Positions 1,977 through 43,219 of a DNA stretch of 44,418 nt are shown piece after piece. The notes below the pieces were generated by a model. That model was not told the origin of the DNA, made no database searches, and saw only the letters and a program-made list of their open reading frames with translations. This stretch comes from a virus, in IMG/VR virus record IMGVR_UViG_3300010401_000047, positions 1 to 44,418 of that record; one strand, written 5' to 3'. A program made the translations under genes and the position numbers. Position 1 is the stretch's first letter. Every line of letters begins with the position of its first letter.

Positions 1977-3016
1977 ACCGATTCCTAGAACTCCTGGCCG
2001 CCCACGCTCACGAACCGTGGGCGATGCTCGCTGAGGCCTTCCAGGAGATGAAGGCGAAAGCCGCCGAGCGGAACGACGTCGGCGCGAGCGCCAAGTCGAT
2101 GATGGCCCTGCCGGGCACGGCCGTGCGGGTGGACAAGATCGCCATCATCCCGATCCAGGGAACCATCTTCCCGAAGGCGAACGACATGACGGCCTACTAC
2201 GGGCTCGTGACGGCCGACGTTCTGCGGCGCGAGGTCCAGGCCGCGGCGAACGACCCGTCCATCGAGGCCATCATCCTGGACGTGGACTCGCCCGGCGGCG
2301 TGGTGACGGGCGTCTCCGAGGCGGCCCAGGCGATCCACGAGGCGGCCCAGCAGAAGCCGGTCGTCGCGGTGGTGACCGGAATGGCGGCCTCCGCCGCCTA
2401 CCACCTGGCGTCCCAGGCCTCCGAGATACTGGTCCTGGGGTCCGGCATGGCCGGGAGCATCGGAGTCTTCATCGCCCACTGGGACATGTCGAAGGCCCTC
2501 GAGCGCTACGGCGAAAAGGTGACCTTCGTGCATGCCGGGAAGTTCAAGGTGGACGGGAACCCCTTCGAGCCCCTCTCGGAAACGGCCCGCGCCGACATGC
2601 AGCAGAAGGTGAACGCGATCTATGAGAGCTTCGTGGCCGACGTCGCCCGCGGCCGCAAGCGGAGCGTGGCCGACGTGAAGGCGAATTTCGGCGAGGGGCG
2701 GGTGCTCCTCGCCAAGGACGCGGTCGCCGCCGGGATGGCCGACTACATCGGGACGATGGGTCAGGCCGTGTCGCGGCTTCTGCGCTCCCAGAAGGGCGGA
2801 TCCATCGGGGTCCGGGCGTTCACGACGGTGAGAGAATTCGAGGCCTTCCTTCGGGATGAAGGCAGGTGCTCGGCCGCGGAGGCGAAGCGGATCGCCGCCG
2901 CCGGCTACAAGGCCAGCGATCCCCGGGACGGGGAACGGGCCGAGACCTCGGGGGAGATGGACGCCGACGCGATGGCCGCGGCGCGCGATTTCATCGCCTC
3001 CTGTCCGCAGCCGTAA
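1973..3016 (+). CDS. S49-family (SppA-like) head maturation protease
   Basis: A 347-residue serine peptidase expected to cleave the capsid delta domain or scaffold during head assembly. The sequence shows the S49 signature ILDVDSPGG, a nucleophile in GMAASAAYH (Ser140 by my count) and the dyad lysine in HAGKFKVDG (Lys190), followed by NPFEPLSE, typical of the family. After about residue 285 comes a tail with REFEAFLRDEG and SAAEAKRIAAAG, an alpha-helical motif common in phage S49 proteins. The ATG overlaps the portal stop and the major capsid gene follows within 20 bases. Confidence 0.9.
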   Translation: MNRFLELLAAHAHEPWAMLAEAFQEMKAKAAERNDVGASAKSMMALPGTAVRVDKIAIIPIQGTIFPKANDMTAYYGLVTADVLRREVQAAANDPSIEAIILDVDSPGGVVTGVSEAAQAIHEAAQQKPVVAVVTGMAASAAYHLASQASEILVLGSGMAGSIGVFIAHWDMSKALERYGEKVTFVHAGKFKVDGNPFEPLSETARADMQQKVNAIYESFVADVARGRKRSVADVKANFGEGRVLLAKDAVAAGMADYIGTMGQAVSRLLRSQKGGSIGVRAFTTVREFEAFLRDEGRCSAAEAKRIAAAGYKASDPRDGERAETSGEMDADAMAAARDFIASCPQP

Positions 3017-3036
3017 GCCCAAGGAGGGCTCATCAA

Positions 3037-4374
3037 ATGGACGAGGAACTGAAGAAGCTGCTCGCGGCGGCGAAGACCCTGAACGAGAACCTGACCAAGG
3101 AGCTCGAGAAGGCCGCCGAGGAGCGCAAGGCGCTGGGCCGCGTGAGCGCGGAGACCCAGGAGAAGTGCGACAAGCTCGAGAAGGCCGTCGGCGACGCCGT
3201 CGCGGCCGGCCAGAAGCGCTGGGACGACATCGAGGCCAAGATCAACCGCGGCGAGCTCTTCGGCGCCGGCGGAAAAGAGGACCCGATCAAGGCGGAGTGC
3301 GAGGCGTTCAACCGCAACATGCGGATGGACCTCGCGGCCCGCGGCCACATCGGCTCCCGGCGCCCGCTCGACGTGGAGGGCTACAAGGCCTACAAGGTGG
3401 CCTTCAGCGCCTATCTGCGGCGCGGCAAGGCGGCCGAGATGGCCCCCGAGTTCATGGCGGCGCTCTCCGTGGGCTCCGACCCGGACGGCGGCTACTTCGT
3501 GCCCGCCGACATGCAGGCGCGCATCATCAAGCAGGTCTTCGAGACCTCGCCCCTGCGCGGCCTCGCGAGCATCATCACGACCTCCCGGGATCGGGTGCAG
3601 TTCCCGCTCGACCTCGACGAGTTCGCCCACGGCGGCTGGGTGGGGGAGACCGGCACGCGCGCCAACTCCAACACCGCCAAGGTCGGCGAGGCGGAGATCC
3701 CCGTCCACGAGCACTACTCGATGCCCCTGGTGTCGAAGAACCTGCTCGCGGACGCGGACTTCGACGTCGAGGCCTGGATCGGCCAGAAGGTCGGCGACGC
3801 CCTCGGCCGCGCGGAGAACGTGGCCTTCGTGACCGGCGACGGGGTGGCGAAGCCGAAGGGCTTCACGACCTACGCCGCCGGCACCCCGACCGCGTCCGAC
3901 TGGAAGAAGATCGAGCGCGTGAACACGGGCGCGGCTTCGTCCTTCGCGGCCGACCCGGACGGCCCGGACGTCTTCATCGACCTCCTGGGGGCCCTGAAGC
4001 AGGGGTACGCGCCCAACGCCTGGGCGATGAAGCGCACGACCTTGACGGCCGCGCGCAAGCTCAAGGACGAGAACGGGCAGTACCAGCTGGTGCAGGTCTC
4101 GGCCGGCGCCGGTCGCCCCGGCTTCGAGATCATGGGCCTGCCGGTCGTCCTGATGGACGCCATGGACGCGCTCGGCGCGAACAAGCTGCCGGTCGCGCTG
4201 GCGGACTGGAAGGAGGCGTACACGATCGTGGACCGGGCGGGCATCTCGCTCATCCGCGACGAGTACTCGAAGAAGACCACCGGTCAGGTGGAGATCCTCT
4301 TCTCGAAGAGGGTCGGCGGCGCGGTGCTGAACACCGAAGCCATCAAGCTGGCGAAGTGCGCGACGAACTCGTAA
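3037..4374 (+). CDS. major capsid protein, HK97 fold
   Basis: A 445-residue protein with a charged, coiled-coil-like N-terminal segment (residues about 1-75), the expected removable delta domain, followed by the HK97-type body. SVGSDPDGGYFVPADMQARI marks the start of the mature domain, and the GWVGETGTRANSN and SKNLLADADFDVEAWI blocks are typical of phage capsid family proteins. A strong ribosome site, AAGGAGGG at 3021-3028, sits 8 bases before the ATG, consistent with high expression. It follows the protease directly, the standard order. Cleavage near residue 100 is expected from the family; no cleavage site was assigned here. Confidence 0.93.
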   Translation: MDEELKKLLAAAKTLNENLTKELEKAAEERKALGRVSAETQEKCDKLEKAVGDAVAAGQKRWDDIEAKINRGELFGAGGKEDPIKAECEAFNRNMRMDLAARGHIGSRRPLDVEGYKAYKVAFSAYLRRGKAAEMAPEFMAALSVGSDPDGGYFVPADMQARIIKQVFETSPLRGLASIITTSRDRVQFPLDLDEFAHGGWVGETGTRANSNTAKVGEAEIPVHEHYSMPLVSKNLLADADFDVEAWIGQKVGDALGRAENVAFVTGDGVAKPKGFTTYAAGTPTASDWKKIERVNTGAASSFAADPDGPDVFIDLLGALKQGYAPNAWAMKRTTLTAARKLKDENGQYQLVQVSAGAGRPGFEIMGLPVVLMDAMDALGANKLPVALADWKEAYTIVDRAGISLIRDEYSKKTTGQVEILFSKRVGGAVLNTEAIKLAKCATNS

Positions 4375-20582: not shown

Positions 20583-20774
20583 GTGGCCAGGCGGCCGCGG
20601 GGCGCCATGCACCCGGCCTACAGGAAAGCCGTCTCCGGCTTCGCCCTCTGCTATCTGGTGATCCGGCTCGAGCGGCACGATCCAGGGAAGTACTGGCGGG
20701 CCTTCGCGGCCTTCATGCGCCACGGCGGGCCCTGGAGGACGGGGGAGTCCTGGCCGCGGTACATTAATAGTTAA
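20583..20774 (+). CDS. small hypothetical protein ending inside an inverted repeat
   Basis: A 63-residue protein from GTG 20583, or from ATG 20607. It contains a short hydrophobic stretch, SGFALCYLVIRLE, and ends with tandem stops TAATAG. Its last codons lie within the conserved repeat copy at 20754-20789, so the C-terminal residues may be an accident of the repeat. No family recognised. It is the last gene of the late operon. Confidence 0.5.
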   Translation: MARRPRGAMHPAYRKAVSGFALCYLVIRLERHDPGKYWRAFAAFMRHGGPWRTGESWPRYINS

Positions 20775-20789
20775 TAGTCGCGCGCGCGA
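20754..20789 (-). repeat. inverted repeat copy A with CG palindrome at the late / repressor operon boundary
   Basis: Read on the minus strand, this contains TCGCGCGCGCGACTATTAAC, then TAT, one differing base, and AATGTACCG. The same stretch occurs on the plus strand at 42216-42250, differing at two positions over about 35 bases, so the two copies are inverted relative to each other, 21.4 kb apart. The alternating CG core is palindromic and could form a hairpin or Z-DNA. The minus orientation follows the end of the leftward repressor/moron operon (stop at 20919). Confidence 0.85.
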
Positions 20790-20854
20790 TTGACGTGCCT
20801 CAGCCCGCGGACCTCGGAGAAGAAACGCCGCCAGCGCCGACGTTCCTCGCGCGG

Positions 20855-20890
20855 CATATAAGATAAGAAGAGAGTAAGATAAGACAAGTA
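20855..20890 (+). repeat. AT-rich purine repeats, copy A (CATATAAGATAAG element)
   Basis: In a gene-free stretch, 20775-20918, an AT-rich block begins CATATAAGATAAGA and repeats GTAAGATAAGA about 20 bases later. The same CATATAAGATAAGA occurs in the same orientation at 42317. The surrounding DNA is two thirds GC, so the block is compositionally striking. It could be a phage-specific regulatory site, a DNA-unwinding element or a binding array; sequence alone does not decide. Nothing else was found in 20775-20918 apart from the repeat copy at its left end. Confidence 0.7.
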
Positions 20891-20918
20891 CCCCCTACCC
20901 CCTGACCGCGCCGGAAGA

Positions 20919-21311
20919 TCAGTACCCAGGAGGAGGCTGGGAGAGCCTCTGGATCTCGTCCAACTGATCCCGCTTCGCGTTCGCGACCGAGCCCGTCAGA
21001 TCGGCGAACCGGACGATGAGTAGGCCGCTCCCCGCGGCCGCGGCGAGCAGCCCGTCCCCGCTCCGAGCCGCGCTGGCCGTGCCCACGACGAGCGCGGCCG
21101 TGATCGCCAAGTAGAACGCCCCGGTGCCTGTCGCGTCCTGGTAGAACCACCCGCCGCCCGGCATGAAGATGCCGTACGCGAGAGCCATCGTGGGATCGGG
21201 CTGGGCCTTGAAGACGTCGAGGTCGAGCTTGCCGGCGGCGGAGCACGGCGCCGCGGCCAGCGTTGCCGCGATGACTCCCGCGATCAGTCGGCCAGCCGCC
21301 CTCGAGGCCAT
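20919..21311 (-). CDS. secreted/membrane moron protein downstream of repressor
   Basis: A 130-residue protein on the minus strand. It has a signal peptide (RLIAGVIAATLAAAPCSAAG, residues about 8-27) and a Gly-rich hydrophobic middle, ALAYGIFMPGGGWFYQDATG, then a membrane segment FYLAITAALVVG. The GGGWFYQ pattern resembles small TM2/DUF5683-type envelope proteins. AAGGAG lies 5 bases before ATG 21311, just after the repressor stop, so the two form one leftward operon likely expressed in lysogeny. Superinfection exclusion or lysogenic conversion is plausible (inference). Confidence 0.7.
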   Translation of the reverse strand: MASRAAGRLIAGVIAATLAAAPCSAAGKLDLDVFKAQPDPTMALAYGIFMPGGGWFYQDATGTGAFYLAITAALVVGTASAARSGDGLLAAAAGSGLLIVRFADLTGSVANAKRDQLDEIQRLSQPPPGY

Positions 21312-21320
21312 TCGATCTCC

Positions 21321-21728
21321 TTACCCCTTCGCATGTGGAAGCCGCTTCCCGAGCAACTTCTCTACGGCCTCGGTCAGCGCTTCAACCTTCTCGCGGAGCT
21401 CCGCCAACCCTTCGTCAAGGATTTCTATACGCGGATCGGGTTCGCCGAGCAACTGCTCGCCGCCCTTGATGTCGCGGTAGTGCTGCGCGAGCCCGGCCGG
21501 ATTGTGGCGCGGATGCGGAGCATTCGGATCAGCGCGCCAGCCTGTTCCACCGAATAGCTTGTCCAGCTTCGGGACGTACTGCGGCGGGATGCGGTCGAGC
21601 TTCTCGAATCGCGTCACTACGCTGGGGTGCACGCGGAGGGCGTTGGCGACCTCGTACTGCTTCAAGTGGCGGAGCTCTCGCGCTGCCTTCGCGGCACGCC
21701 CCGGCACGACGGGGCTGAACGGTTTCAT
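21321..21728 (-). CDS. XRE-family transcriptional repressor (putative immunity repressor)
   Basis: A 135-residue protein from ATG at 21728 on the minus strand; a TTG start at 21788 would add 20 residues but overlap the operator. Residues about 10-60 form a helix-turn-helix: AARELRHLKQYEVANALRVH followed by PSVVTRFEKLDRIPPQYVPK. The C-terminus is a coiled coil (LDEGLAELREKVEALTEAVE), suggesting dimerisation. It lacks the peptidase domain of CI/LexA-type repressors, so control by RecA-driven self-cleavage is not expected. It faces the rightward early genes across the operator at 21782-21799. Confidence 0.8.
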   Translation of the reverse strand: MKPFSPVVPGRAAKAARELRHLKQYEVANALRVHPSVVTRFEKLDRIPPQYVPKLDKLFGGTGWRADPNAPHPRHNPAGLAQHYRDIKGGEQLLGEPDPRIEILDEGLAELREKVEALTEAVEKLLGKRLPHAKG

Positions 21729-21762
21729 CTTCGAGCGAGCCTCACGCGGCCTGCACGTCGGC

Positions 21763-21799
21763 TTGACATGCTGGCAGATTTCTGGCAATATATTGCCAG
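21763..21799 (+). promoter_or_regulatory. rightward early promoter with 18-bp palindromic operator
   Basis: A perfect -35 hexamer, TTGACA, lies at 21763-21768. An AT-rich -10 region (AATATA or TATATT) follows 18-20 bases later within CTGGCAATATATTGCCAG (21782-21799), a perfect 18-bp palindrome. A further half-site, CTGGCAGA, lies at 21771-21778. An operator over the -10 region opposite an XRE gene is the usual arrangement for repression of early genes. The longer-than-ideal spacing makes the exact promoter elements uncertain; the palindrome itself is clear. Confidence 0.75.
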
Positions 21800-21805
21800 G
21801 ACCCT

Positions 21806-22057
21806 ATGAAACCCTCCGCGATCCGCCAGGCCCACACCTGGGCATCCCCGACGAGAAACCGATTCGGCCTTGGCCTGCTACTCGGCGAGCCGGCCAAGAC
21901 CAAAGCGCCAGCGAAAGCAAAAATCCTGCGGAGGGTTTCGCAAGTAGCTGGCGCCTCCATTTTAGCCCTCCCTCACACCACCTTCAAGCCGGAAGTTTTC
22001 CCCGCGACGAGGGGAGAACTTGCCCCTGCCCGAGGGGGAACTTTCCCATGGCTCTGA
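21806..22057 (+). CDS. possible small leader ORF after the operator
   Basis: An 83-codon frame from ATG 21806 with AGGA 7 bases upstream, starting just after the palindromic operator and overlapping the next start by 10 bases. The predicted product is basic and Ala/Pro-rich (AKTKAPAKAKILRR) with no recognised family. The same DNA holds several inverted repeats, so it could instead be an untranslated regulatory leader. Low confidence as a protein. Confidence 0.3.
   Translation: MKPSAIRQAHTWASPTRNRFGLGLLLGEPAKTKAPAKAKILRRVSQVAGASILALPHTTFKPEVFPATRGELAPARGGTFPWL
21808..21939 (+). repeat. long-range perfect 12-bp inverted repeat plus nested 8-bp repeat in the leader
   Basis: GAAACCCTCCGC at 21808-21819 is the exact reverse complement of GCGGAGGGTTTC at 21928-21939, 108 bases apart. 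A second, interleaved pair is GCGCCAGC at 21905-21912 with GCTGGCGC at 21947-21954. The first arm covers the start codon of the small leader ORF, so pairing in RNA could hide it. As DNA, the arms might be operator half-sites. Function unproven. Confidence 0.65.
21993..22047 (+). promoter_or_regulatory. hairpin and palindrome just upstream of the Cro-sized gene
   Basis: AAGTTTTCCCC (21993-22003) and GGGGAGAACTT (22011-22021) pair over 11 positions with one G-T wobble around a 7-base loop. The related palindrome-like GGGGGAACTTTCCC lies at 22034-22047, ending at the ATG at 22048. The repeated GGGGA-AACTT words look like binding sites of a second regulator, perhaps the Cro-sized protein itself, or a translational control hairpin. 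Confidence 0.6.
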
Positions 22058-35692: not shown

Positions 35693-36654
35693 CCAAGGAG
35701 AGCGGCATGAAAACGAAGCAGGCAGGGCCCGGCGCGTTCGAGCCGGCGTTCCCGATCGAGAAGGTGAAGCCCGCGAAGTACAACCCGCGCAAGCTACTGA
35801 AGCCCGGCGACCACGACTACGAGGCGCTGAAGCGCGGCATCTCGGAGTTCGGGATGGTGCAGCCGCTCGTGATCAACAGCGTGAACGGCGTCCTCGTCGG
35901 CGGGCATCAGCGCCTGCAGGTCCTCAAGGACTTGGGCGCGACGTCTGCGCCAGCGGTGCTCGTGCCGATCGCTGACGAGAAGCGCGAGAAGGCGCTCAAC
36001 CTCGCCTTGAACCGCATAGGCGGCGAGTGGGACGAGGAGAAGTTGCGCGCGCTCTTGACCGGGCTCGATGCGGACGCGTTCGACTTCGAGCTCACCGGCT
36101 TCGCCGATGCGGAGCTTCGGAAGCTCATCGAGTGGCAGCCTGGCCTGCCTGGCTTCGACGAGAATATTCCGACGAAGCCGTCGCGCCCGATCACGAAGGC
36201 GGGCGACCTGTATCTCCTCGGCGAGCACCGTCTTTTCTGCGGCGATGCGACTGTACCCGAGCACGTAAAAATCGCCACGGGGGGGGGGTACTCCCCGGAT
36301 GCTCTTCACGGATCCTCCGTGGAACGTGGCGATCGGCGGCGACAACAATCCGAAGCACCGACAGCGGCCGGGCCTCAAGAACGACGACCTCGGCGCGGAC
36401 TTCGGTTCGTTCCTCCAGGCTTGGGCGAAGGCGGTTCTCCCGTGCATCGAGGGCGACATCTACTGCGTCATGGGATGCGGGGAGTGGCCGACCATCGACG
36501 CGGCGCTTCGCGGCGCCGGCATCCACTGGTCCGCGACCATCGTCTGGGTCAAGGACATGTTCGTCCTCGGGCGCTCGAACTATCACCGGCGCTTCGAGCC
36601 GATCTGGTACGGCTGGCCCGAAAAGGGGCGCAGTTCTTTCCGTGGCGGGCGTGA
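35689..36654 (+). CDS. ParB-like domain, N-terminal half of a ParB-methyltransferase broken at a G10 tract
   Basis: ATG 35689 overlaps the previous stop, but AAGGAG at 35695-35700 favours ATG 35707. VKPAKYNPRKLLKPGDHDYE and EFGMVQPLVINSVNGVLVGG followed by HQRLQVLKDLG are a ParB/Srx nuclease-like domain, then a helical linker and DLYLLGEHRLFCGDATVPEH, the normal entry to the methyltransferase domain. At 36279-36288 ten G residues shift the frame; after this point the frame runs out of homology to its stop at 36654. With nine G residues the protein would continue into the next entry as one chain of about 410 residues. Confidence 0.8.
   Translation: MTKESGMKTKQAGPGAFEPAFPIEKVKPAKYNPRKLLKPGDHDYEALKRGISEFGMVQPLVINSVNGVLVGGHQRLQVLKDLGATSAPAVLVPIADEKREKALNLALNRIGGEWDEEKLRALLTGLDADAFDFELTGFADAELRKLIEWQPGLPGFDENIPTKPSRPITKAGDLYLLGEHRLFCGDATVPEHVKIATGGGYSPDALHGSSVERGDRRRQQSEAPTAAGPQERRPRRGLRFVPPGLGEGGSPVHRGRHLLRHGMRGVADHRRGASRRRHPLVRDHRLGQGHVRPRALELSPALRADLVRLARKGAQFFPWRA
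36279..36288 (+). repeat. G10 homopolymer inside the ParB-methyltransferase gene
   Basis: A run of ten G, second longest in the window, located between the ParB domain and the catalytic DPPW motif. The run is one base longer than the reading frame needs. Homopolymers of this type cause slipped-strand phase variation in some methyltransferase genes, and are also a frequent site of sequencing error. Confidence 0.9.
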
Positions 36655-38116: not shown

Positions 38117-38337
38117 AGCCCTACGGCGGGAAGCGGAAGGCGCGGTGCCCAGTGAAGGGGCATGGGACCCGGTGTGGCGTCGCGAAGGACATCGCCCACG
38201 AGCAGGTCACCGATCCGGGCCGTAAGAAGCGCGCTCGCCGCGAGGCCATCCGTGAGATTAACCGCGCTGTCGCGGAGATGATCGAACGGTCGCTGACGCC
38301 CGATCAGAGGGCTTGCCGCGACAAGGGGCTGATCTGA
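38113..38337 (+). CDS. small basic hypothetical protein
   Basis: A 74-residue protein with GGAG before ATG 38113, overlapping the previous stop. It is Lys/Arg-rich with two central Cys residues (KARCPVKGHGTRCGVAKD) and a charged helix (ARREAIREINRAVAEMIERS). It may bind zinc or nucleic acid. No family recognised. Confidence 0.55.
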   Translation: MKPYGGKRKARCPVKGHGTRCGVAKDIAHEQVTDPGRKKRARREAIREINRAVAEMIERSLTPDQRACRDKGLI

Positions 38338-38918
38338 TGGGCTGGAAGAGCGGGCTGAACCGGAAGGCGGACAAGCCGCTCTTGACCTCGTCGCCCATCT
38401 GGCGCGGGGTCGTCATCGAGCACCACGACCCGCGCGAGGCCCAGGACTACGTCTGTGACAAGCGCGAGATGTGCAAGCACTGCCGGGTCGTCACGGAGCA
38501 CGTCGTGCGCCGCGGCGAACACGTCGAGATCAGGACCTGCCAGGCCTGCAAGCGCGATCGCCACATCTGGCTCGCGGACGAGCAGGAGCAGCTGCCGGAC
38601 GACACGAAACCCAAAGGAGACGAACCGATGGCCAAGAACGAGACCGTGACCGTGACAGAAGACCCCATGACGACGAGGATCCGCGAGCTCGCGCGCGAGG
38701 AGATCGCCGCGACCGAGCCGCGGGGGGGGGGGCATCTCGGAGCAGGACGTGCGCGATCTGATCGCCGAGATGTTCGAGAAGGCGGCCGGCGCCCTGCGCG
38801 TGGGCACGACCGAGCGGGCCGAAGGCCGGGAGCCTGCCGCGTCGCCGTGCGAGCGGACGCCCGGATGCTCGAAGCTGGCCGGCCACCGCGGCCGATGCCC
38901 CAAGGGCTGACCGCATGA
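38337..38918 (+). CDS. Cys-rich protein interrupted at a G11 tract
   Basis: ATG 38337 follows the previous stop as TGATG. The N-terminal part has CDKREMCKHCRVVTEHVV and CQACKRDRHIWLADEQE, likely a zinc site. An internal ATG at 38629 has AAAGGAG upstream and may start a second product. At 38722-38732 eleven G shift the frame. With ten G the frame would read GGGISEQDVRDLIAEMFEKA, then SPCERTPGCSKLAGHRGRCP with stop at 38910, a sensible continuation with more cysteines. As given, the frame runs to 38918 with implausible Arg-rich sequence. Function unknown. Confidence 0.55.
   Translation: MGWKSGLNRKADKPLLTSSPIWRGVVIEHHDPREAQDYVCDKREMCKHCRVVTEHVVRRGEHVEIRTCQACKRDRHIWLADEQEQLPDDTKPKGDEPMAKNETVTVTEDPMTTRIRELAREEIAATEPRGGGHLGAGRARSDRRDVREGGRRPARGHDRAGRRPGACRVAVRADARMLEAGRPPRPMPQGLTA
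38722..38732 (+). repeat. G11 homopolymer inside a Cys-rich gene
   Basis: The longest single-base run in the window. It is one base longer than the reading frame on both sides requires, exactly as in the methyltransferase gene at 36279. Phase variation or homopolymer miscount are the two explanations. Confidence 0.9.
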
Positions 38919-39534: not shown

Positions 39535-39947
39535 AGGCGATCGTGATAAAGCAGCCGTTCGCGGGCCTGATCCTGACGAAGGCCAAGAGCGAGGAGTTCC
39601 GGTCCTGGCGGCCGCCTCGGGCCATCTTCTCCGAAGGCATCAGCGAGCGCTTCCTGATCGTGGCCGGCAAGAGCCCTGACCCGCGCATGAAGGGACGGAG
39701 CGACATGGACGGGGCCTGCTACATCCTCGGCCAGGCCATCGCCAGCGCGCGCATCGAGGCCGTGCGCCAGCCGACGCCCGAGATGTGGATCGAGCCAGGA
39801 TGCCCGAGCGGGTACACGGGCTGGGCCTGGAAGCTCGTGGACGTCGAGAAGGTGCCGCCGTTCTGCGTGACCGGCCGGCTCGGCTTCTTCGAGGTCGAGG
39901 CCCCGTCCCACATCATGGCCCAGATGGCCGCGGCGGAACCGACGTGA
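39531..39947 (+). CDS. ASCH-domain protein
   Basis: A 138-residue protein with ATG overlapping the previous stop. KAIVIKQPFAGLILTKAKSE then EFRSWRPP is the ASCH/PUA-like opening (beta strand, hydrophobic helix, Lys-x3-Glu-x-Arg), followed by RFLIVAGKSPD and AIASARIEAVRQPTPEMW. ASCH proteins bind RNA or modified bases, and some act on acetylated cytidine. A role in sensing modified nucleotides suits a genome with four methyltransferase genes, but is inference. Confidence 0.72.
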   Translation: MKAIVIKQPFAGLILTKAKSEEFRSWRPPRAIFSEGISERFLIVAGKSPDPRMKGRSDMDGACYILGQAIASARIEAVRQPTPEMWIEPGCPSGYTGWAWKLVDVEKVPPFCVTGRLGFFEVEAPSHIMAQMAAAEPT

Positions 39948-40444
39948 GGCGCCTGCTCTTCCTGGACTTCGACGGCGTCCTGAACGGCGCCGTGTGCTGG
40001 GAGACGAAGCACGCCCATACCGAGATGGACAAGACCGAACCCGATCGGCATTGGGCGCTCTGCCCGGAGATGGGCGAGCAGCTCAAGCGGATAGCCGACA
40101 CGGTGCCGTCGCTGGAGATCGTCGTGTCGAGCACATGGCGGCTCGGGACGCCGATCGAGAAGCTCCGCGCCCTCCTAGCGCCCTTCGGCATCGCGGGCGA
40201 GAGGGTGATCAGCGCGACGCCTCGCTTCGGCGGCCAGATTCGAGGCCTTGAGATCGCGGACTGGCTCGTGAAGAACGGGGCGTTCGAGTCGCGCATCGTC
40301 ATCCTGGACGACGACCGCGACATGGGCGTCCTGTGGCCCCACCTGATCTGGACGGACTTCAGGAAAGGCCTGACGCCCGCCGATGCGGACGAGGCGATCA
40401 AGCGGCTGACGGCGGTTCTCCCCGTCGATGGGCGACCCCTCTAA
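39944..40444 (+). CDS. HAD-superfamily protein
   Basis: A 166-residue protein from GTG 39944, overlapping the previous stop. LLFLDFDGVLNGAVCWETKH carries the HAD motif I (Asp-Phe-Asp-Gly-Val), IVVSSTWRLGTPIEKLRALL motif II, and RIVILDDDRDMGVLWPHLIW the acidic motif IV. The length and SSTWR pattern match the small HAD proteins common in phages. Phosphatase action on a nucleotide or DNA end is plausible. Confidence 0.82.
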   Translation: MRRLLFLDFDGVLNGAVCWETKHAHTEMDKTEPDRHWALCPEMGEQLKRIADTVPSLEIVVSSTWRLGTPIEKLRALLAPFGIAGERVISATPRFGGQIRGLEIADWLVKNGAFESRIVILDDDRDMGVLWPHLIWTDFRKGLTPADADEAIKRLTAVLPVDGRPL

Positions 40445-40612
40445 ATGATAGAGTCCGTCGGCGCGCAGGAAAAGCCGAGCACCCAGCGAGAGCGGGGGCG
40501 GCGTTTCTGGTCGCGCCGGTACCGCGAGCCCGTCTCCGCCGCCGGCGCGATCGAGATGTCCCGAAACCTCCCTCCCCTCTTCGACCTCCTCATCCGCTGG
40601 GCCCGGCACTGA
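40445..40612 (+). CDS. very small hypothetical protein
   Basis: A 55-residue protein from ATG 40445, just after the HAD stop. RERGRRFWSRRYREPVSAAG is Arg/Trp-rich, followed by a hydrophobic amphipathic end (LPPLFDLLIRWARH). No family recognised. It precedes the integrase by 14 bases, the position often used for an excision regulator, but there is no direct evidence for that. Confidence 0.5.
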   Translation: MIESVGAQEKPSTQRERGRRFWSRRYREPVSAAGAIEMSRNLPPLFDLLIRWARH

Positions 40613-40626
40613 CCGCGAGCCGATCC

Positions 40627-42198
40627 ATGTCCACGAAGGCCGTCATCTACGCGCGGGTGTCCTCCCGCGAGCAAGCCGACGAAGGCTATTCCATCGAGTC
40701 GCAGCAGAAGCTCCTGCGCCGGTTCGCCGAGGACCGCGGCTATGAGATCACGGCCGAGTTCGTGGACGTCGAGAGCGCGAAGACGTCGGGCCGCGAGCAG
40801 TTCAAGGCGATGCTGGCCCACCTCCGTCGGCACACCTCCGTCACGACGATCCTCTGCGAGAAGACCGACCGCCTCTACCGCAACTTCCACGACTACATCG
40901 AGCTCGACGTGGACGGCGGCGGCCTGACGCTCGTCCTGGTGAAGGAGAACGTCGTGTTGAGCAAGGAGTCGCGCTCGCACGAGAAGCTCGTCCACGGCTT
41001 CAAGGTGCTCCTGGCGAAGAACTACATCGACAACCTGAAGGAGGAGACGGCCAAGGGCCTCCTCGAGAAGGCCGAGCAGGGATGGTTCCCGCAGCAGGCG
41101 CCCGTCGGCTACCGGAACAACAAGGCCGAGAAGACCATCGAGCCCGACCCGGCGAAGGCCGCGTTCATCAGGAGGCTGTTCGAGCTCTTCGCCAGCGGAA
41201 CGTACACGATCGACACGGCCCGCGCCCAGATCACGATGGAGGGCCTGCGCTCGAGGACGGGCCGGATCCTGTCGCGGAGCGAGATCCACCACATCCTGTC
41301 GAACCCAATCTACTACGGCGTCTTCCGTTGGCAGGGCGCGCGCTACGACGGCAAGCACGAGCCCATCATCGACCGCCCGCTCTTCGACGCGGCCCAGGCG
41401 GCCATGAAGCGCCACAACAAGCCCAGGAAGACGAAGCACGACTTCCCGTTCCGCGGCCTGCTGACGTGCGGCCGTTGCGGGTGCGCCTACACCGCCGAGC
41501 TCAAGAAGGGCAAGTACGTCTACTACAGATGCACGACGTCGAAGGGGAACTGCTCGCGCGACTACATCCGCCAGGAGGACCTCGACGAGAAGCTCGCGGC
41601 CGCCGTCAAGGCGATCCATATCGACAAGGACGTCATCGACGAGATGCTCGAGACGATGCGCGAGAGCCACGGCCAGGAGAAGGCATACCACGACGCGGCC
41701 GTCGCCTCGCTCCAGGCGGAGTACCGGCACCTGCAGGGCCGAATCGATAAGGCCTACGAGGACAAGCTCGACGGTCGGATCACCGAGGACTTCTGGAAGG
41801 CGAAGACCGAGGCGTGGCGCACGGCCCAGGAGAAGGCCCGCGGCGCGATCGCCGCGCACGAGAAGGCGAACCAGGCCTACTTCGAGCAGGGCGCCGACCT
41901 GCTACGCCTGGCGTCGAGGATGTATGACCTCTACCGAGTTCGAAGTCTGTCCGAAAAGCGCCAGCTGCTCGATCTGGTGACTTCGAACTTTACCGTCACA
42001 GGGAAATGCGTCGTGCCTGTTTACAAAAAGCCCTTCGACATTCTCGTCGAAGGGCTCGCTTGTCCAAATGGGCTGCCCCGATTGGACAACCTTCGCAACT
42101 CCCTGCAGGGATGGCTCCGAGACGCGGTCGCGATCCAGAGCGCCGCGGCCTCCACGCGGGCGATGTTCGCTGCCTCGGGACACCTCGCCATGTGCTGA
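40627..42198 (+). CDS. large serine recombinase (phage integrase)
   Basis: A 523-residue protein. The catalytic domain begins AVIYARVSSREQADEGYSIE with nucleophile Ser12, and CEKTDRLYRNFHDY completes the active-site region. The recombinase domain contains APVGYRNNKAEKTIEPDPAK and RTGRILSRSEIHHILSNPIY. The zinc ribbon is CGRCGCAYTA (from Cys281) with YYRCTTSKGNC. A coiled coil (AEYRHLQGRIDKAYEDKLDG) lies in the C-terminal third. It would catalyse attP x attB integration; no excision factor was recognised. A repeat-rich 475-base gap follows. Confidence 0.9.
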   Translation: MSTKAVIYARVSSREQADEGYSIESQQKLLRRFAEDRGYEITAEFVDVESAKTSGREQFKAMLAHLRRHTSVTTILCEKTDRLYRNFHDYIELDVDGGGLTLVLVKENVVLSKESRSHEKLVHGFKVLLAKNYIDNLKEETAKGLLEKAEQGWFPQQAPVGYRNNKAEKTIEPDPAKAAFIRRLFELFASGTYTIDTARAQITMEGLRSRTGRILSRSEIHHILSNPIYYGVFRWQGARYDGKHEPIIDRPLFDAAQAAMKRHNKPRKTKHDFPFRGLLTCGRCGCAYTAELKKGKYVYYRCTTSKGNCSRDYIRQEDLDEKLAAAVKAIHIDKDVIDEMLETMRESHGQEKAYHDAAVASLQAEYRHLQGRIDKAYEDKLDGRITEDFWKAKTEAWRTAQEKARGAIAAHEKANQAYFEQGADLLRLASRMYDLYRVRSLSEKRQLLDLVTSNFTVTGKCVVPVYKKPFDILVEGLACPNGLPRLDNLRNSLQGWLRDAVAIQSAAASTRAMFAASGHLAMC

Positions 42199-42215
42199 GT
42201 CTAGGGGACGTACAG

Positions 42216-42250
42216 TCGCGCGCGCGACTATTAACTATAAATGTACCGGG
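42216..42250 (+). repeat. inverted repeat copy B with CG palindrome, just after the integrase
   Basis: TCGCGCGCGCGACTATTAAC, then TATAAATGTACCG, matches the minus-strand sequence of 20754-20789 with two differences. AGTCGCGCGCGCGACT at 42214-42229 is a perfect 16-bp palindrome. It begins about 18 bases after the integrase stop, in sense orientation with that operon, just as copy A follows the leftward operon. A shared terminator, a recombination site or an origin element are the candidates. Confidence 0.85.
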
Positions 42251-42316
42251 GAAAGCCCGGATTGTCTGCCGAAAGGAGAGCGAGGAACGACGTCAGCGAA
42301 AGCGAGATTCGACGAA

Positions 42317-42350
42317 CATATAAGATAAGAGTCAGATAAGATAAGAGTAC
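42317..42350 (+). repeat. AT-rich purine repeats, copy B (CATATAAGATAAG element)
   Basis: CATATAAGATAAGA followed by GTCAGATAAGATAAGAG repeats the element at 20855 in the same direction. It lies upstream of the late operon, in the gene-free stretch 42199-42673, which otherwise contains copy B of the CG repeat, a hairpin and a promoter candidate. No tRNA or coding region is supported there. Binding of a late activator or an unwinding role is possible. Confidence 0.7.
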
Positions 42351-42571
42351 ACTACTACTACAGCGATCAGCGACCTTCGGAATCAAGGAAATCGAAGACC
42401 GTACGATCGCGACGAACGACAGCCTGGCCCAACGGCCAGGATTCCGCCGCGGCCTCCGCCGCCACCGCTGCAAGCGCGTCAAGCCTCGAGGAGGCGATCC
42501 CCGCCCTGGAGCGCCCTCCGAAATGCAAAAAGTCGAGATGAATTGAAAACAGCCCCTCCTGCAAGCGTGCT

Positions 42572-42673: not shown

Positions 42674-43219
42674 TTGCCGAGAAAGCCGACGAGCCCCTGC
42701 AAGCAGTTCCCTTGTCCGAACATGGCCGAGCCCGGCCGTGGAGCTTGCGCGTCCCACCTGTCCGACCAAGCGAAGATAGAGGACCACGATCGCGGGAGCA
42801 GCGCGAAGCGCGGGTACGGCGCGCAGCACCGCGCCTGGCGCAAGCTCGTCCTGCACCGCCATCCCGTCTGCGTGATCCAGGTGCTGTGCAACGGCGCGCT
42901 CTCCATCGTCGCCGACCACATCGTCCCGCTCAACCGCGGCGGTACGTTCGCTGAGACCAACGGACAGGGCGCGTGCGAGGACTGCCACAACTGGAAGCGG
43001 GCGACGCTCGACAAGCGCGCGATGACGCTCGAGCAGATCCTCGCGGCCCAGGACACGGCCAGGCAGACGAAGCATCTTCAGCCGGACGCCCACGTCGCGG
43101 ACGAGCGCGCCGACGCGGACGGGGGTAGGGGGGGTGAAATCCTCGGAGGAAAAAGCCCGCGACCGGCCCCCTGCCTTCGCGCGCGTGGCCGCGAAATTCA
43201 GGCTGGGGGGGTCGCGTGA
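42674..43219 (+). CDS. HNH endonuclease next to terminase
   Basis: A 181-residue protein from TTG 42674; the N-terminal PRKPTSPCKQFPCPNMAEPG matches the usual start of terminase-linked HNH proteins, so this weak start is preferred. The catalytic region is RAWRKLVLHRHPVCVIQVLC, ADHIVPLNRGGTFAETNGQG and ACEDCHNWK: Asp-His and the zinc cysteines are present. HNH proteins of this kind assist the large terminase in cos-site cleavage in HK97-like phages. The C-terminus is Gly/Arg-rich. Confidence 0.8.
   Translation: MPRKPTSPCKQFPCPNMAEPGRGACASHLSDQAKIEDHDRGSSAKRGYGAQHRAWRKLVLHRHPVCVIQVLCNGALSIVADHIVPLNRGGTFAETNGQGACEDCHNWKRATLDKRAMTLEQILAAQDTARQTKHLQPDAHVADERADADGGRGGEILGGKSPRPAPCLRARGREIQAGGVA

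What the first reader, a model, noticed from the sequence alone, without database searches (positions are those of the whole stretch)
20754..20789. Inverted pair of about 35-bp repeats with CG palindrome at the two operon boundaries
The same sequence occurs at 20754-20789 (minus orientation) and 42216-42250 (plus orientation), with only two differences, flanking the entire early region. Each copy follows the end of the operon transcribed towards it (leftward repressor/moron; rightward integrase), which suggests a duplicated terminator. Because a serine recombinase gene abuts copy B, the pair could also be recombination sites able to invert the 21.4-kb early block. The alternating CG core could form Z-DNA or a cruciform.
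Basis: partly seen in the sequence, partly recalled or inferred. Interest (0 to 1): 0.75.

Follow-up and report, generated by a model that had tools for sequence, protein, structure and literature searches.

The report
Duplicated regulatory element bracketing phage genes
A 44-kb temperate phage genome carries the same short DNA element, flipped, at both edges of its structural-gene operon, each time followed by a second shared AT-rich repeat; it is probably a pair of gene-control sites, not the sites its integrase uses.

Summary
A 36-bp (up to 47-bp) element, X, occurs inverted at 20754-20799 and 42205-42251 with two differences over the 36 bp. It is the only strong repeat in the genome and is far beyond chance.

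Y lies just right of each X, in direct orientation, and holds two 16-bp-spaced ATAAGATAAGA units. These are the two most AT-rich 40-mers of the genome.

On the circular genome the X-Y units bracket the late operon exactly.

The recombination-site reading is not supported. Integrase relatives in Elusimicrobiota genomes stop matching at 42076-42078, where a host tRNA-Gln begins. That places attP at about 42060-42089, inside the integrase gene, not in X.

The terminator reading is weak. X has no U-tract, its hairpins are no stronger than background, and the conserved part is mostly outside the stem. The CG palindrome is also unremarkable by length.

Best reading: a duplicated protein-binding control element at both borders of the late operon. 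No copy of X was found outside this record, so comparative proof is lacking. Interest is modest.

The parts
20754..20799 (+). X element, copy A (AT arm GGTACATTAATAGTTAATAG, CG core TCGCGCGCGCGA, short tail); overlaps the stop codon of the last rightward late ORF (stop at 20772-20774)
42205..42251 (-). X element, copy B, inverted; its 36-bp core begins about 15 bp after the integrase stop
20816..20898 (+). Y element, copy A: ATAAGATAAGA / GTAAGATAAGA, 16 bp apart, inside an about 83-bp stretch alignable with copy B
42275..42358 (+). Y element, copy B, same strand as copy A; ATAAGATAAGA twice, 16 bp apart; the most AT-rich 40-mer of the genome
40333..42198 (+). large serine integrase (Resolvase, Recombinase and Zn-ribbon domains); last gene of the early block
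42060..42089 (+). attP inferred: TTGTCCAAATGGGCTGCCCCGATTGGACAA, inside the integrase gene 3' end
   Evidence: homology of integrated relatives stops at 42076-42078 where tRNA-Gln(CTG) starts
20607..20774 (+). last rightward ORF of the late operon (55 aa from ATG; 20508 if the longer ORF is used)
   Evidence: no family match
20919..21311 (-). last ORF of the leftward operon, converging on X/Y copy A
   Evidence: no family match
21321..21788 (-). HTH_3 protein, probable repressor
   Evidence: PF01381, E 5e-5
42674..43219 (+). HNH endonuclease, first gene of the late/packaging operon to the right of X/Y copy B

Best explanation
X and Y form a two-part cis-regulatory cassette of a temperate phage, present once at each border of the late (packaging, head, tail) operon. 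X is most likely a sequence-specific DNA site bound by a phage or host regulator that sets or insulates the limits of late transcription: copy B lies between the integrase and the late operon start, copy A between the late operon end and the converging lysogeny operon. Y, AT-rich with 16-bp-spaced direct repeats, is probably a companion binding or melting site. Shown: sequence, copy number, positions, orientation, absence from the collections searched, and (by comparison of junctions) that attP is a different site. Inferred: protein binding and a role in late-operon control. Not shown: the binding protein, transcripts, and the direction of action.
For: Only two copies of each motif exist, all at the two late-operon borders. 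X is near-identical including its non-hairpin AT arm, while its flanks are unrelated, which fits recognition of DNA sequence rather than of a stem. Y accompanies X at both places at similar distance, and its AT-rich units are the two most AT-rich 40-mers of a 67.6% GC genome. Multi-copy intergenic palindromic elements in either orientation are seen in phiC31, whose module order (late, repressor, early, int, then packaging) is similar.
Against: No relative carrying X was found, so conservation with function cannot be shown. X is inverted while Y is direct, so the pair is not a simple duplicated cassette. X does not match the probable repressor operator CTGGCAATATATTGCCAG at 21782-21799. No sigma-70-type promoter was found near copy B. 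No candidate binding protein is identified.
Confidence: 0.45

Rival explanations
1. X is a duplicated transcription terminator. It stops leftward lysogeny transcripts at A and rightward integrase or read-through transcripts at B, so both copies protect the late operon.
For: Position and orientation fit: with respect to the operon leaving the early block, both copies read CG hairpin first and AT-rich tract second. Copy B has a 6-bp stem (-8.7 kcal/mol) and a second small GC hairpin behind it.
Against: No U-tract; no hit in terminator scans. Copy A's stem in this direction is 4 bp, -4.2 kcal/mol; 32-48% of random 30-mers of the genome fold as well. In the opposite direction the stems are stronger (-6.9, -11.3) but no T-rich tail follows. 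A real terminator-like structure of this phage (42029-42055, minus strand, -22 kcal/mol with TTTTT) looks quite different.
Confidence: 0.25
2. X/Y marks replication control: AT-rich direct repeats as melting sites or iterons, X as initiator or fork-arrest site.
For: The Y units are the two most AT-rich 40-mers of the genome, with direct repeats. The phage encodes an O-like/DnaD-like initiator and a DnaB helicase.
Against: Two sites 21 kb apart; neither is near the initiator gene; cumulative GC skew has no turning point at either site.
Confidence: 0.1
3. The two X copies are recombination sites (of the serine integrase or another recombinase) that invert the 21.4-kb early block.
For: Inverted orientation; integrase gene adjacent to copy B.
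Against: The integrase's attP is mapped to 42060-42089 by relatives joined to tRNA-Gln, and X has no resemblance to it. No second recombinase was found among the ORFs scanned; not every small ORF was scanned.
Confidence: 0.03
4. Module-boundary remnant: X and Y are traces of past module exchange or of an insertion with inverted ends, without present function.
For: Exact location at module boundaries; 36-bp inverted ends around a 21.4-kb block resemble transposon geometry.
Against: No transposase recognised, no target duplication visible by eye, equal GC of both blocks (67.5 and 67.7%). X is kept nearly identical while neighbouring Y has diverged, which suggests selection on X.
Confidence: 0.12

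Closest known systems
phiC31 (Lomovskayavirus) repeated intergenic palindromic elements (CCTACTCACGTGAGTAGG family) and a second repeated intergenic motif (GGGTTGCCGACTCCCTTAC)
   Same: Temperate phage with large serine integrase and similar module order; near-identical short elements between genes in both orientations.
   Different: Many copies across early and late regions; true full-length dyads; unrelated sequence. Here only two copies, an asymmetric AT arm, and a distinct companion repeat Y. That such phiC31 elements are repressor operators, terminators or early promoters is from memory, not tested.
Cluster A mycobacteriophage (L5-type) stoperators
   Same: Asymmetric repressor-type sites in intergenic regions oriented with transcription (own knowledge).
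   Different: 13-bp sites in a few dozen copies (own knowledge); here 2 copies of 36-47 bp, and the probable repressor operator is a different palindrome.
Phage intrinsic terminators at convergent operon ends
   Same: Position at operon ends, small GC stem next to an AT-rich tract.
   Different: No U-tract, stem no better than background.
Serine recombinase sites (integrase attP/attB; hix/gix-type inversion sites)
   Same: Paired, inverted, near a serine recombinase gene.
   Different: The integrase's attP is another sequence inside the gene; invertible segments of hix/gix systems are a few kb (own knowledge) and need a dedicated invertase.

Membership tests
Serine integrase attachment site | Lies at the point where phage homology is lost at the host junction in integrated relatives | tested here: not met
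   Junction at 42076-42078 with tRNA-Gln in L156 and L159, same tRNA-Gln junction in L093 and L162; X lies about 130 bp away
Intrinsic (rho-independent) terminator | Stable GC stem-loop | tested here: not met
   Stem energy equals background: 32-48% of genome 30-mers fold at least as well
Intrinsic (rho-independent) terminator | Run of T directly after the stem | tested here: not met
   Scans and reading of both strands
Transcription terminator of any type | Transcript 3' ends at the site | not testable with these tools
   No RNA data
DNA inversion site pair | Inverted orientation of two near-identical sites | tested here: met
DNA inversion site pair | Both orientations of the intervening DNA in a population | not testable with these tools
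   No reads held
Phage repressor operator | Same sequence at the repressor's own promoter region | tested here: not met
   TTAATAG-type motifs occur only in the two X copies; region 21780-22050 has a different palindrome
Phage regulatory site of another kind | Bound by a regulator | not testable with these tools
   No binding data
Replication origin | AT-rich direct repeats | tested here: met
   Y units
Replication origin | Strand-composition turning point | tested here: not met

The most novel reading that the evidence does not exclude
The two inverted X sites, each with its Y neighbour, are bound by one protein that bridges them, closing the late operon in a DNA loop in the prophage (B lies about 130 bp inside one prophage end, A at the operon's far end), so that the whole structural module is silenced or insulated as a unit.
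Probability: 0.07. Interest if true: 0.6.

Novelty: new member of a known kind. Interest (0 to 1): 0.3.

Why it matters
Temperate phages must keep the late operon silent in the lysogen and open on induction. A pair of near-identical sites that bracket exactly that operon, with a companion AT-rich repeat, is a compact and testable candidate for such a control element in a phage whose integrase points to Elusimicrobiota. It does not by itself reveal a new mechanism, and the recombination reading that made the finding most exciting is not supported.

Tried and rejected
X was not found in IMG/VR (three exact patterns), in 341 Elusimicrobiota genomes with up to 3 mismatches (only chance-level 3-mismatch hits for the shorter pattern), in 20 related virus records (one chance-level hit inside unrelated sequence), in the phage collection (one 19-bp chance match) or in plasmids. 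Y's paired pattern hit three AT-rich viral contigs with longer TAAGA arrays, judged unrelated low-complexity, and nothing in 44 Elusimicrobiota genomes. Close relatives were sought by integrase, terL, major head protein and DnaB: none close in IMG/VR (best terL 55%, head protein 37%). Elusimicrobiota genomes held only distant head-protein matches and one distant terL match, so the host assignment rests on the integrase alone. No Rfam family. Z-DNA/cruciform: palindrome length is within chance. Transposon ends: no transposase recognised, no target duplication seen by eye. Chance repeat: excluded.

Full report
Setting. The window is an IMG/VR virus record of 44,418 bases, 67.6% GC. Its two ends hold the two parts of one large terminase gene, so it is read as a circularly permuted phage genome with a small gap there. 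Going round the circle: HNH endonuclease (42674), small terminase, large terminase, head protein (2866-4374), connector and tail genes, up to a last rightward ORF ending at 20774. Then come two leftward ORFs (21788-20919, one with an HTH_3 domain), then a rightward early block with an O/DnaD-like initiator, DnaB, three DNA methyltransferases and, last, a large serine integrase (40333-42198).

Observation. The inverted repeat exists as described, with two differences over 36 bp. It is far beyond chance: no shuffle holds the 22-mer, and the pair scores 58 bits as a self-match against a maximum of 48 in 60 simulated genomes, with the next real self-match at 36. With one gap it extends to 47 columns, X (20754-20799 and 42205-42251; z about 14.6). 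The CG palindrome itself is not special: 12-bp palindromes are as frequent as expected and the longest ones lie within the simulated range. So the signal is the repeated sequence, not the palindrome.

Right of each X lies a second shared stretch, Y (20816-20898, 42275-42358), on the same strand in both places (z about 8.4). It holds two ATAAGATAAGA-type units 16 bp apart, found nowhere else in the window; these are the two most AT-rich 40-mers of the genome. So X is inverted and Y is direct. The X-Y pairs bracket the late operon on the circle.

Not the integrase's site. A relative of the integrase (59% identical) in an Elusimicrobia metagenome-assembled genome abuts a tRNA-Gln(CTG); two others in Woesebacteria and Levybacteria genomes do the same. 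DNA alignments of window int with copies in other Elusimicrobiota genomes end at 42076-42078, exactly where tRNA-Gln begins. The window has TTGTCCAAATGGGCTGCCCCGATTGGACAA there (42060-42089), an inverted repeat around the shared GGCTGCC. This is attP, by inference from junctions. X lies about 130 bp further on and would end up near the end of the prophage away from int. It shares no sequence with attP. No second recombinase was recognised among the ORFs scanned.

Not a standard terminator. In the direction proposed, copy A folds to -4.2 and copy B to -8.7 kcal/mol, values that a third to a half of random 30-mers in this genome reach. No T-run follows, and scans for terminators find nothing at X. 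In contrast, the integrase gene's 3' end holds a -22 kcal/mol hairpin with a T5 tail on the minus strand. X's long AT arm, outside any stem, is conserved in 19 of 20 positions. That fits recognition as DNA better than as RNA. Termination helped by a factor cannot be excluded; position and orientation fit it well.

Search for relatives. No copy of X was found in viral contigs, phages, plasmids, 341 Elusimicrobiota genomes or 20 related virus records beyond chance level. No close relative of the phage itself was found with four proteins. The comparison that would decide function is therefore missing. Absence in these collections is weak evidence, since the phage's own group is hardly sampled there.

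Judgement. The most economical reading is a duplicated, sequence-specific control element at both borders of the late operon (0.45). Rivals are an atypical terminator (0.25), a module-boundary remnant (0.12), a replication element (0.10) and inversion sites (0.03). phiC31, with similar module order, also carries repeated intergenic elements in both orientations, but many of them and with different sequence. The element is thus an example of a known general kind, phage-specific repeated intergenic control sites, with an unusual two-copy layout.

Noticed in passing
42029-42055 (minus strand) and L093, L156, L157, L159, L162: The integrase codons for the conserved YKKPFDILVEG motif double as a terminator-like hairpin on the minus strand (-22 kcal/mol, TTTTT tail), directly behind the host tRNA-Gln after integration. 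Relatives keep the stem with paired changes (weaker in L093 and L156), as if the phage supplies a new terminator for the tRNA gene.
   Followed up: partly
42060-42198 and L093, L156, L159, L162: attP lies inside the integrase reading frame: the free form reads on for about 40 codons, while in four integrated relatives the host tRNA-Gln supplies a TAG stop right after the crossover, so integrase would have a long viral and a short prophage form.
   Followed up: partly
36279-36288: A run of 10 G coincides with the frame break in a ParB-domain/N6-N4 DNA methyltransferase fusion (phrog_498 continues from the 35689 frame into the 36299 frame): assembly error or phase variation. A second run of 11 G lies at 38722-38732 in ORF 38313-38918.
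   Followed up: partly
21782-21799: Single perfect 18-bp palindrome CTGGCAATATATTGCCAG at the start of the HTH repressor ORF, a probable operator.
   Followed up: no
40333-40620: Integrase relatives align only from about residue 97, so the first ~95 codons of the annotated ORF may be untranslated or a private extension.
   Followed up: no
39785-40444: ORF before the integrase matches HAD_SAK_2 (HAD domain of Swiss Army Knife RNA repair proteins, E 3.6e-24), unusual for a phage early operon.
   Followed up: no
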